Source: Candidatus Thorarchaeota archaeon
Lineage (GTDB): Archaea > Asgardarchaeota > Thorarchaeia > Thorarchaeales > Thorarchaeaceae
Direction: 5' to 3'
Length of the DNA: 41,714 nt
Assembly: GCA_016839245.1 (NCBI GenBank)
Contig: JAEOUN010000063.1
Location: forward strand, 1-41,714
The notes under the pieces are model-generated. The model was not told the origin of the DNA, searched no databases, and saw only the letters and a program-made list of their open reading frames with translations. Both the position numbers and the translations under genes were made by a program. Shown here in pieces: positions 1,072 through 30,082 of this stretch (the stretch's first letter is position 1; each line of letters begins with the position of its first letter).

Positions 1072-1174
1072 TGGGCCCGGGGCGACTTGAACGCCCGGCC
1101 GACAGGTTATGAGCATCAACACACTAGAGAAATTCTTGGTGTTCTGCTGCTCTACCAAGCTGAGCTACGGGCCC
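1072..1174 (-). tRNA. tRNA with CAU anticodon (Met elongator or Ile2), with a 29-nt intron
   Basis: Reading the minus strand from 1174, the acceptor GGGCCCG pairs with CGGGCCC. The D stem is GCTC/GAGC and the T arm is GGGCG-TTCAAGT-CGCCC. The anticodon loop CTCATAA gives anticodon CAU. Discriminator A is at 1072 and CCA is encoded at 1071-1069. The 5' strand of the anticodon stem (GCAG+G) is contiguous with its partner CCTGT only after removal of 1143-1115. The mature tRNA would be 74 nt. CAU is read by elongator tRNA-Met and, after agmatidine modification, by archaeal tRNA-Ile2; the GGGCCC acceptor does not settle which. It is not the archaeal initiator, whose acceptor differs. Confidence 0.9.
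1115..1143 (-). other. tRNA intron at non-canonical position 30/31 with strict BHB motif
   Basis: On the minus strand the exon helix is GAG/CTC and the central 4-bp helix is CAGC/GTTG (one G-U). The 3-nt bulges are AGA and ATG, each cut after its second base, and the intron helix is ACAC/GTGT around a 14-nt loop. Cutting gives exon 1 at 1174-1144, a 29-nt intron, and exon 2 at 1114-1072. The join completes the anticodon stem GCAGG/CCTGT. Most archaeal tRNA introns sit at 37/38, so this site lies within the anticodon stem instead. Confidence 0.85.
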
Positions 1175-25513: not shown

Positions 25514-25879
25514 TTATTTTAGCATTGATAGCAAGGCTCTTCGTAGAGCTAATAGAAGAAGTCCAACTGATTCTCGTGCACCTTCTCCTGCAACAGCAGC
25601 CATGACGATCTTTACATCACCCATAATAATTATGAAACCGTGGTCTGAAGAGATATTTACTTCTTTGAGACCTCCTTTGTCCAGACCTGCACTCAGTTGA
25701 GATGAATTAGCTGCAATCTTCACTGCAAGAGCCGCCACATCTGAATGCTTGATTCCTCCGGTGATTGTATGTCCAAAGAGTACGTTACCCTTTGCATCAC
25801 ACACGATCATTCCCTGTAGGTCTGCATTATCTGCCATTGTTTCAGTTACAATTTTTTCAATTTTCTCTTTGTCTACCAT
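25514..25879 (-). CDS. Roadblock/LC7 domain protein A
   Basis: 121 residues. A single Roadblock/LC7 fold: helix EKIEKIVTETMADNADLQ, strand GMIVCDAKGNVLFGHTI, the long helix SDVAALAVKIAANSSQLS, then KEVNISSDHGFIIIMG and a last helix. These proteins dimerise and serve as platforms or activators for small GTPases (MglB-MglA in bacteria, Ragulator-Rag in eukaryotes). AGGAGG precedes the ATG. A TATA-like run (ATAAAATATATAG, minus strand) lies at about 25935-25950. It is divergent from the VWA gene and 3.2 kb from the GTPase gene. Confidence 0.85.
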   Translation of the reverse strand: MVDKEKIEKIVTETMADNADLQGMIVCDAKGNVLFGHTITGGIKHSDVAALAVKIAANSSQLSAGLDKGGLKEVNISSDHGFIIIMGDVKIVMAAVAGEGARESVGLLLLALRRALLSMLK

Positions 25880-26071
25880 TATCGGGTTTCCTCCTAAGAG
25901 GTCTCAATTATCTATCTTCGTGATTGTACCTGATGTCTATATATTTTATCCGTTAGACATCTCTTTAACTCTTAGATAAAAAGTCACTTTTCAATGATAT
26001 AAGAAGCAGTCGATTGACTTAAATTTCTTCATGCGAAAGGTGGCTGAATAATTTTGGAGGCGAATAATTAG

Positions 26072-27700
26072 ATGCCTATGTTGAGAACTAGCTCAGAGGC
26101 TTTTCCCGCATCGAAAGACGTTCTGAGCGACATTCCATATGTCTTACGTGTGGAGTTTGGTCATCTCGCACACGAAACCACAAAAATCGTAGGGAAACCA
26201 ATAGCATGCCACAAATGTAATGGCTTCCTACTTAGTGTAGACCAAATTCAGGAAGACCCTAAAGTTGGTAGACATTTTATTTGCTCTTTCTGTGGTACCC
26301 TGAATATCATTGAAGGTGAGATTGTAGTTGCCGGTGATGATACTGACTTTGTAATAGAACCTCCGAAGACAACATCTGATACGGGTAAAGGTTCTGTATC
26401 CACTGGTGGTAGGTCATTCTTGGCGCTTATTGATGTCTCAGGTTCCATGGGTGGAGCGAACCTATCTGCTGTAAAACGAAGTCTCAATACATCCATAGAT
26501 AGTCTTGCAGCTAATGCGCCAGATACAATGTTTGGGCTCGTTGAGTTTGAGAGTAGTGTTCTCGCCAGAAATCTAGAAACTGGAGAACCAATTCAACTAC
26601 CTCATGAATCCTTTGCCAGTCTGAAAGCTATCATGGAATCAACCAAAAAGATGCTTGACAAGATCAAGCTTGTTGCTGTTGGAAAGAATGCAAAGAAGCT
26701 CAAAGAACATGTTCAAGATCTCCGAGATCAAGGTGGTACTGCCCTTGGTCCGGCTGTAGCCATGGCCTATGTCATTGCTAAACATCGCGATGTTGGTCGA
26801 ATTGTCTTACTCACTGATGGTCTTGCTAACGAGGGAATTGGCGCCCTTGAGGGTTATCAGGTGACTCCAGCAAACAAGTACTATGAAGACTTGGGAAAGA
26901 TGTTCTTAGATATTGGTGCAGCAGTTGATGTAGTAGGTATAGCCTCAGGAGCTGGCATGGAGCTGAAGACTCTTGGTCTTCTTCCAGAGGCTACTGGAGG
27001 ACAGATGTATTATGTCACTCCTAATGAACTTGATAGGAGTATTTCAGAACTGGCAGGTGCATCACTTCTCGGTCGTGATGTTGAGGTTCGTCTTGTAACA
27101 CCTCCTGGCATCTCTATCAAAGATGCATCTGGTGTGTCTCGTACTGTTGTTGATACTCTAAAGAAAAAGAGTGAGAGTAAGGTTGGAGTCGTAGGTGCAG
27201 ATCATGAGATCTATTTTGAGGTTGCTCCTGAGAAGGAGATCAAGACACCCGAGGTTCCAATTCAAGTCCAAGTCACCTATACCGATGAAGAAGGAGCTCG
27301 ACGAGTTCGAGCAGTCACTACAAAACTCAGGGTCTCTAAAAAGGAGGATGAGATCATGGCGACTCTAGATCCAACAGTTGGAGCGACTTTTGTCACGCAG
27401 AAGGCTGGTGAAGAGTCATTCGGAGGTGACCGCGAGAAGGGTAGGGCACGCATTGCATCTTTCAGGTCCGCAATGAAAAAGAAAGCAGATGCTGCGCCTA
27501 AGGCTGTACAGGCAATGCTTGACAAAGCTGATCGAGCTCTCGAAAGCGAGGAGAAAGAGATTCAGCGTCAGGAGGAAGCAATGAAGATGGCTCCTGCTGC
27601 TGCTCCATCTGGAGTTGCTGATGAGGCCTTCACAGAGAACTTGGCACAGATGAAGCGAAGCTCGAAGACTCTCTTCAAGAAAGACAAAGACGAAGAGTAA
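26072..27700 (+). CDS. VWA-domain protein with N-terminal zinc knuckle
   Basis: 542 residues. The N-terminal ribbon has CHKC (46-49) and CSFC (71-74). A von Willebrand A domain follows, with the MIDAS motif Asp121-Val-Ser-Gly-Ser125, the second metal position in GGTALGPAV and the third in LLTDGLANEG. A beta-sandwich segment comes next (about 340-430), then a helical charged tail rich in Lys, Ala and Glu. No signal peptide or membrane segment is seen, so it acts inside the cell. GGAGG precedes the ATG. It lies among Roadblock genes, suggesting a scaffold or metal-regulated adaptor of that system, which is inference. A clear hairpin terminator follows. Confidence 0.85.
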   Translation: MPMLRTSSEAFPASKDVLSDIPYVLRVEFGHLAHETTKIVGKPIACHKCNGFLLSVDQIQEDPKVGRHFICSFCGTLNIIEGEIVVAGDDTDFVIEPPKTTSDTGKGSVSTGGRSFLALIDVSGSMGGANLSAVKRSLNTSIDSLAANAPDTMFGLVEFESSVLARNLETGEPIQLPHESFASLKAIMESTKKMLDKIKLVAVGKNAKKLKEHVQDLRDQGGTALGPAVAMAYVIAKHRDVGRIVLLTDGLANEGIGALEGYQVTPANKYYEDLGKMFLDIGAAVDVVGIASGAGMELKTLGLLPEATGGQMYYVTPNELDRSISELAGASLLGRDVEVRLVTPPGISIKDASGVSRTVVDTLKKKSESKVGVVGADHEIYFEVAPEKEIKTPEVPIQVQVTYTDEEGARRVRAVTTKLRVSKKEDEIMATLDPTVGATFVTQKAGEESFGGDREKGRARIASFRSAMKKKADAAPKAVQAMLDKADRALESEEKEIQRQEEAMKMAPAAAPSGVADEAFTENLAQMKRSSKTLFKKDKDEE

Positions 27701-27728
27701 TTTACAAGTATATCAATGACAAACGTGC

Positions 27729-27766
27729 AGCCGTGTAGTGTTTTTGCACGGCTCACTACTCTTTTT
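27729..27766 (+). terminator. Hairpin plus T-run terminator after the VWA gene
   Basis: AGCCGTG and CACGGCT form a perfect 7-bp stem around an 11-nt loop (27729-27753), followed by TTTTT at 27762-27766, 29 bp after the VWA stop. It separates the VWA gene from the Roadblock genes. Confidence 0.65.
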
Positions 27767-27905
27767 ATAACGTAACACAACCTCAAATATGTTTAAAATG
27801 CGCAATTTGTTATATTGCATGGCAACATATCTCCACAAGTCTAAAATAGTCAACTGCGGCGTAGTTGTTGTCAGTGCACAGTTGAAGTAGCGGGGAATCC
27901 GTACA

Positions 27906-28205
27906 GTGATAACACAAGAAAAACTCCAAACCATCTTGGCAAGACTCAAGGCACAGGAAGGTGTACGTGGAGTCGTAGTAACTAACATGGAGGGTCTTCC
28001 ACTCAGTAGTGATCTTGACCCTGATACTACGGAAAACGTCGCTGCTATCATCACCTCTCTCGTTGGAAAAGCCCTCGACGCAGTGAGGGAACTTCGTGAG
28101 GGGTCGCTGTCCTTTCTGACCCTAGATACAGCTAAGGGTCAAATTAATATCGCACCAGACGTAACCGAGGGACTAATATTAGTAGTCCTCAAGAATAATC
28201 AGTAG
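27906..28205 (+). CDS. Roadblock/LC7 domain protein B
   Basis: 99 residues from a GTG start. The minimal Roadblock fold is complete: LQTILARLKAQEGVRGVVVT, NMEGLPLSSDLDPDTTENVA, a long helix ending VRELREG, then LSFLTLDTAKGQINIAPD and a closing LILVVLKN strand. The short length leaves no extension. A TATA-like GTTTAAAA near 27788 and a leader with inverted CAACTG/CAGTTG repeats precede it. The intron-containing Roadblock gene starts 43 bp downstream, so the two probably form one transcript. Confidence 0.85.
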   Translation: MITQEKLQTILARLKAQEGVRGVVVTNMEGLPLSSDLDPDTTENVAAIITSLVGKALDAVRELREGSLSFLTLDTAKGQINIAPDVTEGLILVVLKNNQ

Positions 28206-28248
28206 ATAAGATAAATGGGTAACTAACAACTCTGAGGTGGAAAGAATA

Positions 28249-28751
28249 ATGAGTACATCGGACCCGAAGGTCTTTGATCGCATTCTCACAGAGATAATAC
28301 GACAGGACAAGGGCATAAAAAAGGTGATTCTCGTAGATAAGACAGGTTTGACCATCGCTAATGTTAGCAAGCTAAGTTACTATCCAGTAGATTGCAGTCT
28401 GTGATTTCCACTCACTGCCTACAAGTGGATAGTATCGGTGCCATTGCAAGCGCTGTCTTCTGTGCAAGTGAGGAGCAGGGCAAGAACCTGCAGATTGGGG
28501 AGCTTGAGATAGTCACTTCTGAATTCTCGGAGGGCAAGATCTTCGCCTCCGCCTGTGGAAAAGGTGTACTCTGTGTAGTTTCCGAAGCAGAGGTCAATAT
28601 TGGTCTTATCCGGCTTGTAATGAAGAAGCAAGGTGTACAGCTTGCTGATGAACTTGACAAATTCTTGGCCGTCGAACCATTATCTCCAAAGGATAGTGAA
28701 CTCGATGAGGAAGACCTCAAGTCTGCACTGGCTGAGCTCGAGCGTGTATGA
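28249..28751 (+). CDS. Roadblock/LC7 domain protein C, interrupted by a putative 32-nt BHB intron
   Basis: Exon 1 (28249-28392, 48 codons) and exon 2 (28425-28751, 108 codons plus stop) lie in different frames. Read through, the first frame stops at TGA 28402-28404 after 51 residues. Joined at the predicted splice sites, the gene encodes one 156-residue protein, with GIKKVILVDKTGLTIANVSK, then SYYPVD joined to VDSIGAIASAVF, then EEQGKNLQIGELEIVTSEF and VNIGLIRLVMKK. This is a continuous Roadblock fold with an acidic C-terminal tail (SELDEEDLKSALAELE). The start ATG has GAGGTGG upstream. Both halves keep coding character, so it is not a decayed pseudogene. It precedes the GTPase gene. Confidence 0.85.
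28393..28424 (+). other. Protein-coding intron with strict bulge-helix-bulge motif (32 nt)
   Basis: The exon helix TACTATCCA (28378-28386) pairs with TGGATAGTA (28426-28434), 9 bp. The central helix GTAG (28387-28390) pairs with CTAC (28419-28422), 4 bp. The bulges are ATT (28391-28393) and AAG (28423-28425). The intron helix GCAGT (28394-28398) pairs with ACTGC (28414-28418), 5 bp. Cutting after the second base of each bulge, as archaeal tRNA endonuclease does, removes 28393-28424. 32 nt is not a multiple of three, and its removal restores the reading frame exactly at GAT-GTG. No mispairing occurs in the three helices. Confidence 0.85.
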
Positions 28752-29112
28752 CCTAGAGACCACCTCTATTTCCATGGGTTGCACTACTTATCCCCGTAGC
28801 ACCAGTCTGATTAGTAAATACTCCGATTCAAACCTAAGTGTGCTGTGTGTGAGTCCCAAGGCATCTCTTTGCCACTCCAGTGAACACTATCCAATACGTT
28901 TGCTTAAAGTATCTCTCCTACTCCTTCTTTCCAAAATAACTCGGGATAATACTCGCATATTATAAGTAAGACGTAGTCTGAAACATTAGGCTAAGAGATT
29001 CTTGTCCCACAAAGGCTTTTATGAGACATAATTTCTTACTCAATTAATCTCCCATCACAGGACCAAAGTCTCGAAGGCATACCATCCTCGGGTAGAGTCA
29101 TGACAAAATGAG
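28752..29112 (+). other. 361-bp intergenic region upstream of the GTPase gene
   Basis: No convincing gene is seen; the one long frame overlapping its left part is out of frame with protein C. It holds two TATA-like elements, ATATTATAAG (28957-28966) and CTTTTATG (29016-29023), either of which could drive the GTPase gene with a leader of about 70-120 nt. No tRNA-like fold or repeat was found. Confidence 0.4.
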
Positions 29113-29685
29113 GTGTTTACGATTCGCAAAGACGACAAGGGCAGAATTCATCTGAAACTGGTCTTCTATGGTCCCAGTCTCGGCGGTAAGACCACAGCCC
29201 TCAGATGGCTCTATGGAAAAGTAGAAGGTCTACAGAAGGGAGAGTTCACTGCTATCGAAGACGAGACCAATCGTACGCTGTTTTTTGACTACGTGCCCTT
29301 AGCAGCTGGAGGTAGAGTACTCTTTGACGTATTCACCGTAGCTGGTCAGAAGCGTCACAGACACCAGCGAAAAGTGGTGCTACAGGGTGCAGATGGTATC
29401 ATCTTTGTGGCTGACTCCTCACCGGACCAGCGTGATGAGAACACAGAGAGCTTCGAAGAGTTGAAATTATTCTTGGGTGATGCTCTTGGGCGTGAGATTC
29501 CGATAGTCGTCATGCTTAACAAGAGAGACCTACCGAATCGAATGTCACGTGACGAGATGCTTGACCTTCTAGGTCTTGGCAGCAATGTGGCTATCTACGA
29601 GTCCATTGCAGTGCAAGGCGTAGGAGTTAAGAGGGCGTTCCAAGCAATAGCACGAGAAGTCATACTGAAAAGGATGTACCGCTAG
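29113..29685 (+). CDS. MglA/Ras-superfamily small GTPase
   Basis: 190 residues from a GTG start. The G1/P-loop is GPSLGGKT (20-27), with the extra Gly-Gly spacing of MglA-type GTPases. The G3 region is TVAGQ (75-79) in place of DTAGQ, as in bacterial MglA, whose catalytic geometry depends on a partner. G4 is NKRD (136-139) and G5 is probably ESIA. No C-terminal cysteine or lipid site is seen, so it is soluble or recruited by partners. Roadblock genes lie on both sides, which matches the MglA-MglB and Rag-Ragulator logic in which Roadblock dimers bind the GTPase. Confidence 0.9.
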   Translation: MFTIRKDDKGRIHLKLVFYGPSLGGKTTALRWLYGKVEGLQKGEFTAIEDETNRTLFFDYVPLAAGGRVLFDVFTVAGQKRHRHQRKVVLQGADGIIFVADSSPDQRDENTESFEELKLFLGDALGREIPIVVMLNKRDLPNRMSRDEMLDLLGLGSNVAIYESIAVQGVGVKRAFQAIAREVILKRMYR

Positions 29686-29710
29686 AAAAATAATAGACAG
29701 GTGAAGAAAA

Positions 29711-30082
29711 ATGGGAGAGTCCCGTGAAAATACGCTTGAAGGTGTTCTGAACGAACTGCAGGGAAGTATTCCCGAGATAGAAGCCTGTGCAATTGTGAGT
29801 GTGGAAGGCTTACCTATTGTATCAGCTCTTCCAACAGATGTTGACGAGGCAAAGGTTGCCGCTATGACTGCAGCGATGCTGACGCTTGGTGAGAAGGCAT
29901 CCATTGAGTTAGGAAAGGGAAACCTTGAACAGGTAAACATCAAGGGCATTGATGGCTGGCTCTTGGTCGTGCAGGCTGGGATGAATGCCTGCCTGACTGT
30001 CTCAACAACTGCGAATGCTAAACTCGGTCTCATCTTTCTTGACATGAAACGTGCCGCTGAGAAGATTGCTCAGATGATTTAG
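29711..30082 (+). CDS. Roadblock/LC7 domain protein D
   Basis: 123 residues. Roadblock fold: LEGVLNELQGSIPEIEACAIVSVEGLPIVS, a long Ala-rich helix (EAKVAAMTAAMLTLGEKASIE), then LEQVNIKGIDGWLLVVQAG, LTVSTT and the closing helix. It is MglB-like in length. It starts 25 bp after the GTPase stop with AGGTGAA in the gap, so the two are probably cotranscribed, and it is the best candidate for the GTPase's direct partner. Confidence 0.88.
   Translation: MGESRENTLEGVLNELQGSIPEIEACAIVSVEGLPIVSALPTDVDEAKVAAMTAAMLTLGEKASIELGKGNLEQVNIKGIDGWLLVVQAGMNACLTVSTTANAKLGLIFLDMKRAAEKIAQMI

What the first reader, a model, noticed from the sequence alone, without database searches (positions are those of the whole stretch)
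28249..28751. Protein-coding BHB intron in a Roadblock/LC7 gene
Seen directly: two frames that together spell one Roadblock protein are separated by 32 nt. The flanks form a perfect bulge-helix-bulge: 9-bp exon helix 28378-28386/28426-28434, 4-bp central helix 28387-28390/28419-28422, 3-nt bulges 28391-28393 and 28423-28425, 5-bp intron helix. Cuts at the standard sites remove exactly 28393-28424 and join PVD to VDSIG in frame. Known: archaeal mRNA introns of this type are rare, the best-known case being cbf5 in Crenarchaeota. Inference: an Asgard mRNA for a GTPase-platform protein is spliced by the tRNA endonuclease and ligase. Without splicing only 51 residues are made, so splicing could control the dose of this protein.
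Basis: partly seen in the sequence, partly recalled or inferred. Interest (0 to 1): 0.95.

Follow-up and report, generated by a model that had tools for sequence, protein, structure and literature searches.

The report
Split Roadblock gene with tRNA-type intron
In this Asgard-type archaeal DNA a gene for a small GTPase-helper protein is interrupted by a 32-letter insert lying in the RNA fold that tRNA-splicing enzymes cut, so its messenger RNA is likely spliced by that machinery; unrelated inserts sit in the same gene of other Asgard genomes, which suggests that this gene has gained introns repeatedly.

Summary
28378-28434 can fold as a perfect canonical bulge-helix-bulge (9-bp exon helix, 4-bp centre, two 3-nt bulges, 5-bp intron helix), and this is its minimum-energy fold. 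The standard cut sites remove 28393-28424, the only tested deletion that restores the conserved peptide. The joined 156-aa Roadblock protein matches uninterrupted Thorarchaeota homologs at up to 99%; 80 of 80 GTDB orthologs examined lack the insert. An assembly accident is unlikely: a 49-aa protein cluster from other contigs (P0129) ends with the same intron-encoded tail. Scanning 227 Asgard genomes found four more split orthologs with unrelated 31-32-nt inserts: G059/G080, 2 nt away, and G113/G211 at a second site; each restores its clade's peptide. Kin genomes mostly carry two EndA genes, the catalytic one with the Crenarchaea-type lysine loop, and RtcB. The known kind is the archaeal pre-mRNA BHB intron, known from crenarchaeal cbf5; my paper searches listed no Asgard case. 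Splicing is inferred: no RNA data. Dose control is untested. Verdict: real, predicted EndA-spliced mRNA introns, recurrent in one Asgard gene.

The parts
28249..28392 (+). Exon 1 of the Roadblock/LC7 gene (48 codons)
   Evidence: homologs
28393..28424 (+). 32-nt intron TGCAGTCTGTGATTTCCACTCACTGCCTACAA (splicing predicted)
   Evidence: BHB cut rule; only tested deletion that restores the peptide
28425..28751 (+). Exon 2 (108 codons and stop)
   Evidence: 98-100% protein identity to loci L001-L010
28378..28386 (+). Exon helix, 5' strand
   Evidence: 9 of 9 pairs versus 2-8 in 27 uninterrupted orthologs
28426..28434 (+). Exon helix, 3' strand
28387..28390 (+). 4-bp central helix, 5' strand
28419..28422 (+). 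4-bp central helix, 3' strand
28391..28393 (+). 5' bulge ATT; predicted cut between 28392 and 28393
28423..28425 (+). 3' bulge AAG; predicted cut between 28424 and 28425
28394..28398 (+). Intron helix, 5' strand
28414..28418 (+). Intron helix, 3' strand
27906..28205 (+). Upstream Roadblock/LC7 gene, same strand (start codon not settled)
   Evidence: Pfam PF03259; synteny
29113..29685 (+). Downstream Arf/Ras-like GTPase gene (uninterrupted control)
   Evidence: Pfam PF00025/PF00071
29711..30082 (+). Third Roadblock/LC7 gene of the cluster
   Evidence: Pfam PF03259; synteny

Best explanation
Window 28249-28751 is one Roadblock/LC7 gene split by a 32-nt intervening sequence (28393-28424) that lies in a canonical bulge-helix-bulge, and it is predicted to be cut from the pre-mRNA by the host's tRNA-splicing endonuclease, with the exons likely joined by RtcB. 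Shown by sequence: the pairing, the exact restoration of a conserved protein, the uninterrupted kin, the same intron-encoded tail in other contigs, and unrelated inserts at two sites of the same gene in other Asgard genomes. [quoted passage not shown] The intron is young or often lost, because close relatives lack it. Unspliced transcripts would give a 51-aa fragment, so splicing would be required for the full protein; whether it is regulated is unknown.
For: Structure and cut. Joined protein has a Roadblock/LC7 domain across the junction (PF03259, residues 17-100, 1.8e-9) and is 92-99% identical to the 19 homologs aligned with it. 80 of 80 GTDB loci uninterrupted. Same intron-encoded tail elsewhere: P0129 ends ...YYPVDCSL; cluster of 8 member sequences, 3 contigs, different N-terminus. 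Other inserts: G059 and G080 (31 nt, 2 nt downstream), G113 and G211 (32 and 31 nt at a second site), each restoring the peptide of its clade; uninterrupted close kin of G059/G080 are G073, G096 and G225. G059 against G080: exons differ at 44 synonymous and 3 nonsynonymous codons while 30 of 31 insert bases agree; G113 against G211: 68 and 9, with the insert stem rewritten but still paired in the predicted folds. EndA: two genes in 25 of 27 Thorarchaeota-group genomes and in 8 of 9 others; RtcB in 27 of 27. EndA alpha of G006 is closest in the PDB to 3p1z (4.9e-43), with K49-P50-K51 aligned to K44-P45-R46 (that 3p1z is Aeropyrum pernix EndA is and recall); 15 of 15 alpha subunits looked at, from 15 of the 36 genomes searched, keep K-P-K/R and the Tyr-His-Lys triad.
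Against: No RNA evidence of splicing. The window's own genome is not held, so its EndA and RtcB are unseen. The same-intron claim for P0129 rests on a translated tail of three residues plus stop, not on DNA, and not every member of that 90%-identity cluster need have it. In one search no exon-2 fragment with the intron-encoded N-terminus stood among the 120 listed of 398. The intron core was found in 0 of 99 kin genomes. The inserts of the other four genomes are not canonical BHBs: in G059/G080 the minimum-energy fold is an internal-loop form, and a BHB with 3-nt and 4-nt bulges is 1.4 kcal/mol less stable; G113/G211 have a 3-nt 5' bulge but a looped 3' side, and their borders are ambiguous by 2 nt.
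Confidence: 0.9

Rival explanations
1. The 32 nt are an assembly or sequencing error, or a chance insertion, in a normal gene.
For: Near-identical kin lack it; DNA-level evidence from this window alone; no genome held for it.
Against: The same intron-encoded tail occurs in a protein cluster from other contigs with a different N-terminus. An error would hardly make a perfect 9+4+5-bp BHB whose cut sites are the only tested peptide-restoring borders. Comparable splits recur in the same gene in two pairs of other genomes; none was seen among the listed rows for the adjacent GTPase gene.
Confidence: 0.04
2. The gene is a pseudogene: the insert killed it and there is no splicing.
For: Reading frame interrupted; intron-less copies exist in kin; no spliced RNA seen.
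Against: Both exons keep the conserved sequence. The insert-bearing pairs diverged mostly at synonymous codons: 44 against 3 and 68 against 9, though how long each pair has carried its insert is inferred. No second copy of this gene was seen in the window.
Confidence: 0.03
3. Ribosomes hop over the 32-nt hairpin (translational bypassing, as in T4 gene 60, recalled).
For: A short non-coding gap with a strong hairpin.
Against: Bypassing needs matching take-off and landing codons (recalled). Take-off would be GAT; the triplet before the restart GTG is CAA (sequence). A hop from GAT to the next GAT would drop two residues that the 19 aligned homologs keep as VD or TD. In G059/G080 ATT and AAT differ too (read). 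The window's fold fits the EndA rule exactly.
Confidence: 0.01
4. The BHB is cut but the exons are not joined: EndA processing lowers the mRNA, as may happen to one Haloferax mRNA (PMC7714728).
For: Haloferax EndA cuts an mRNA in vivo and in vitro (passages).
Against: Removing the insert restores the clade's peptide in all five split genes, with the predicted cut among the possible borders; a pure degradation switch needs no such match.
Confidence: 0.02

Closest known systems
Crenarchaeal cbf5 pre-mRNA intron (PMC2738675; abstract and section 8 read)
   Different: Other gene (Roadblock, not pseudouridine synthase), other lineage (Asgard). The cbf5 motifs newly predicted there are mostly unconventional BHBs, the window's is canonical. 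For cbf5 one ancestral intron is inferred; here at least three unrelated inserts in orthologs. I did not align the introns with each other.
Archaeal tRNA BHB introns (Asgard tRNA introns: PMC11291895, passages)
   Same: Same fold and predicted enzymes; 92-95% of tRNA genes in three Asgard genomes hold introns, often at non-canonical places.
   Different: Interrupts an mRNA, with no tRNA body as scaffold.
Haloferax mRNA cleaved by EndA (PMC7714728, passages)
   Same: An mRNA substrate of the splicing endonuclease.
   Different: Not described, in the passages seen, as a split reading frame restored by exon joining.
Eukaryotic HAC1/XBP1 mRNA splicing (PMC4090602 passages; details recalled)
   Same: mRNA spliced by a tRNA-type route outside the spliceosome.
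   Different: Cut by Ire1, not EndA, and under stress control (recalled).

Membership tests
Archaeal BHB (EndA-type) introns | 4-bp helix between two 3-nt bulges at the exon-intron borders, with flanking helices | tested here: met
   Window. The four other genomes have relaxed forms
Archaeal BHB (EndA-type) introns | Cuts between bulge residues 2 and 3 give the true exon borders | tested here: met
   Only tested peptide-restoring deletion equals the predicted one; uninterrupted homologs
Archaeal BHB (EndA-type) introns | Host encodes EndA and a ligase | tested here: inconclusive
   Window's genome not held; EndA and RtcB in 27 of 27 kin genomes
Archaeal BHB (EndA-type) introns | EndA cleavage in vitro | not testable with these tools
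Archaeal BHB (EndA-type) introns | Spliced RNA seen | not testable with these tools
   no RNA reads at hand
Crenarchaeal cbf5 intron | Lies in the cbf5 gene | tested here: not met
   Gene is Roadblock/LC7
Self-splicing group I or II introns | Ribozyme core recognised by family models | tested here: not met
   32 nt long; the only Rfam match in the window at gathering threshold is a tRNA
Translational bypass element | Identical take-off and landing codons | tested here: not met
   GAT against CAA in the window (sequence); ATT against AAT in G059/G080
(alpha-beta)2-type EndA with Crenarchaea-specific loop, in kin genomes | Sequence marks: two PF01974 genes; alpha with Tyr-His-Lys and loop K-P/V-K/R; beta without the catalytic His | tested here: met
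   Two genes in 25 of 27 and 8 of 9 genomes, one gene in G001, G013 and G210; loop and triad in 15 of 15 alpha subunits looked at; beta of G006 has Asn where 1a79 has His (one beta aligned)
(alpha-beta)2-type EndA with Crenarchaea-specific loop, in kin genomes | Assembles as a heterotetramer with relaxed specificity | not testable with these tools
   needs purified protein

The most novel reading that the evidence does not exclude
The Roadblock gene of Asgard archaea is a landing site where tRNA-type introns are still being born: EndA and RtcB reverse-splice or re-insert small introns into mRNA hairpins of this gene, so the archaeal kin of eukaryotes show mRNA intron gain, loss and perhaps splicing-controlled dose of a GTPase-platform protein in action.
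Probability: 0.3. Interest if true: 0.95.

Novelty: new member of a known kind. Interest (0 to 1): 0.87.

Why it matters
In the papers I saw, archaeal introns in protein-coding genes are documented for cbf5 of Crenarchaeota. Here such introns are predicted in Asgard archaea, the closest known archaeal relatives of eukaryotes, in a gene of the Roadblock/small-GTPase set, with intron-less and intron-bearing copies in close relatives and at least three unrelated inserts in orthologs. That would make intron birth and loss by the tRNA-splicing route directly testable, warns that gene callers truncate such genes, and gives a defined RNA substrate for Asgard EndA.

Tried and rejected
Exact intron in viral contigs: none. 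Intron core with up to 3 mismatches in 99 kin genomes, to find a tRNA-intron donor: none. G059 insert core: one copy each in G059 and G080, none in three kin, so no donor found. Exon-2 fragment search for sister alleles: nothing above the uninterrupted homologs among the 120 listed of 398. ORF-joining BHB scan of 88 sequences (0.9 Mb, G-U allowed outside the centre, exon helix at least 5): 68 candidates, the window's the strongest by summed helix length; the other 67 were not followed up. All-against-all search for split genes (939 ORFs, 129 sequences, 1.08 Mb): 28 groups, 8 of them this Roadblock gene (five genes, three of them listed twice); the other 20 are supported by at most 6 query ORFs and were not checked one by one; several come from ORFs antisense to the conserved genes. 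That set is biased, because the loci were fetched for this gene. Neighbour GTPase control (223 of 227 genomes with a match, row list cut): among the listed rows three begin well inside the protein; two are contig ends, one lacks the N-terminus with no exon recognised upstream. Phylum scan: 218 of 227 genomes had a match, but genomes whose best match was weak were looked at only in part (29 genomes, 17, overlapping), so four split orthologs is a lower bound. On the tree the intron label is not clustered (5 changes, 4.9 in shuffles), which speaks for separate events but also leaves loss and transfer open. P0132, a 67-aa protein that shifts frame after YY, looks like a deletion and was not followed. 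Group I/II introns rejected on length and lack of Rfam match. Searches failed because 'of' needs a G handle. Confidence was lowered from 0.91 to 0.9 after refolding G059/G080.

Full report
What is there. The window lies in Thorarchaeota-like DNA: the best held loci are syntenic and about 73-77% identical over kilobases, and the joined Roadblock protein matches Thorarchaeota proteins at up to 99%. A cluster of Roadblock/LC7 genes (27906-28205, 28249-28751, 29711-30082, with a further match below cut-off at 25514-25879 on the other strand), an Arf/Ras-like GTPase (29113-29685) and a Sec23-like protein (26072-27700) are read. The second Roadblock gene is split in two frames by 32 nt.

All helices and bulges are at the stated places; the minimum-energy fold is the BHB. 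It is the only strict BHB in the window with both outer helices at 4 bp or more; that threshold is met by chance about once in two one-strand shuffles, but none of 40 shuffles reached 5/5, and this site is 9/5. Of the deletions tested, one restores the conserved peptide, and it is the one that the BHB rule predicts. The nine exon positions are fully paired in the window, against 2-8 Watson-Crick pairs in 27 uninterrupted Thorarchaeota-group orthologs and 2-6 in 53 others, so codon choice fits the helix better than in any of these 80; one uninterrupted ortholog (L018) already reaches 8.

Kin without the intron. The 19 homologs aligned with the joined protein are uninterrupted, and so are 80 of the 80 loci kept out of 111 GTDB matches. 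The nearest proteins differ in about 1-3% of residues.

The same intron elsewhere. A search with the 51-aa exon-1 product, whose length window excludes full-length homologs, returned 7 proteins. One, P0129 (8 member sequences, 3 contigs, ENA), ends ...SKLSYYPVDCSL, the window's intron-encoded tail and stop, behind a different N-terminus. The other six end otherwise. So the intron very likely exists in separate contigs of a related strain or species; their DNA could not be read here.

Other inserts in the same gene. A protein scan of 227 Asgard genomes (218 with a match) and follow-ups showed split orthologs in G059, G080, G113 and G211; weak-match genomes were inspected only in part. G059 and G080 carry a 31-nt insert (one base differs, and a pair is kept) whose junction lies 2 nt downstream of the window's; removal gives YYPVDIDGIGAIAS as in kin G073 and G096 (G225 has YLPVDIDGIGAIAS), which are uninterrupted. 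Their minimum-energy fold is not a BHB; a form with a 9-bp exon helix, CGAC/GTCG centre, 3-nt and 4-nt bulges and a 5-bp intron helix is 1.4 kcal/mol less stable and its cuts AT|T and AA|TG give the right borders. G113 and G211 carry 32- and 31-nt inserts at a second site; removal restores SCGPKGVLTLISDP, and SCGPKGVL stands in 30 of the 41 orthologs listed. Their insert stems differ in sequence yet both pair; the 3' side is looped. Borders are unique in the window, ambiguous by 1 nt in G059/G080 and by 2 nt in G113/G211. A tree of 88 orthologs puts the five intron rows in three separate groups and needs 5 changes, 4 of them forced by well-supported branches; with unrelated sequences and two sites this means at least three gains, with loss or transfer possible within groups.

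Selection and control. Between G059 and G080 44 synonymous and 3 nonsynonymous codons differ while the insert keeps 30 of 31 bases; between G113 and G211 it is 68 and 9. The neighbouring GTPase gene, searched in the same 227 genomes, showed no comparable split among the listed rows.

Machinery. Two EndA-family genes were found in 25 of 27 Thorarchaeota-group genomes (one in G001 and in G013) and in 8 of 9 others (one in G210), including all four intron-bearing ones; RtcB in 27 of 27 (partial in G002). The alpha subunit of G006 is closest to 3p1z, with K49-P50-K51 aligned to K44-P45-R46 of the Crenarchaea-specific loop; 15 of 15 alpha subunits looked at keep K-P-K/R and the catalytic triad. Passages of PMC12397907 describe this loop and lysine as important for relaxed substrate recognition; section 8 of PMC2738675 ties cbf5 introns to hetero-oligomeric EndA. 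The window also holds a tRNA-Met with an insert of about 29 nt, so the organism likely splices tRNAs.

How it most likely works. The pre-mRNA would fold into the BHB, EndA would cut after 28392 and 28424, RtcB would join the exons and perhaps circularise the intron. Pairing, borders and comparative pattern are shown; transcription, cutting and joining are inferred. Splicing would be needed for the full protein; regulation of dose is possible, but the patchy presence of the intron speaks against an essential switch.

Known or new. Passages of PMC7714728 count one mRNA with a BHB before that study and add one Haloferax mRNA. My eight paper searches listed no paper on an Asgard mRNA intron by title or abstract start; of the listed Asgard papers I looked inside one (PMC11291895, passages), and subscription papers are not held, so this is not proof of absence. 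It is a new member of a known kind, in a new phylum and gene, with an unusual history of repeated gain.

Noticed in passing
window 1072-1174, minus strand: tRNA-Met (CAT) with an insert of about 29 nt in the anticodon arm, missed by the default scans and found by ARAGORN with introns and by permissive Infernal (46.8 bits). I infer a non-canonical position near 30/31; the fold is not a clean BHB.
   Followed up: partly
window 25514-30082: Roadblock genes, an Arf/Ras-like GTPase and a Sec23/Sec24-trunk-like protein (PF04811, 2.1e-10) lie together, with the same order in most of the Thorarchaeota loci compared.
   Followed up: partly
protein P0132: 67-aa Roadblock protein (jgi) that shifts frame right after SKLSYY; looks like a deletion near the same spot.
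   Followed up: no
protein P0122: Roadblock protein with a Lokiarchaeota-like first third and a Thorarchaeota-like remainder; recombinant or chimeric contig.
   Followed up: no
G113:C56 (L126) and G211:C60 (L127): Inserts share place and flanks but not stem sequence, and their hosts are not sisters in the tree: repeated loss, transfer or repeated gain within Lokiarchaeota.
   Followed up: partly
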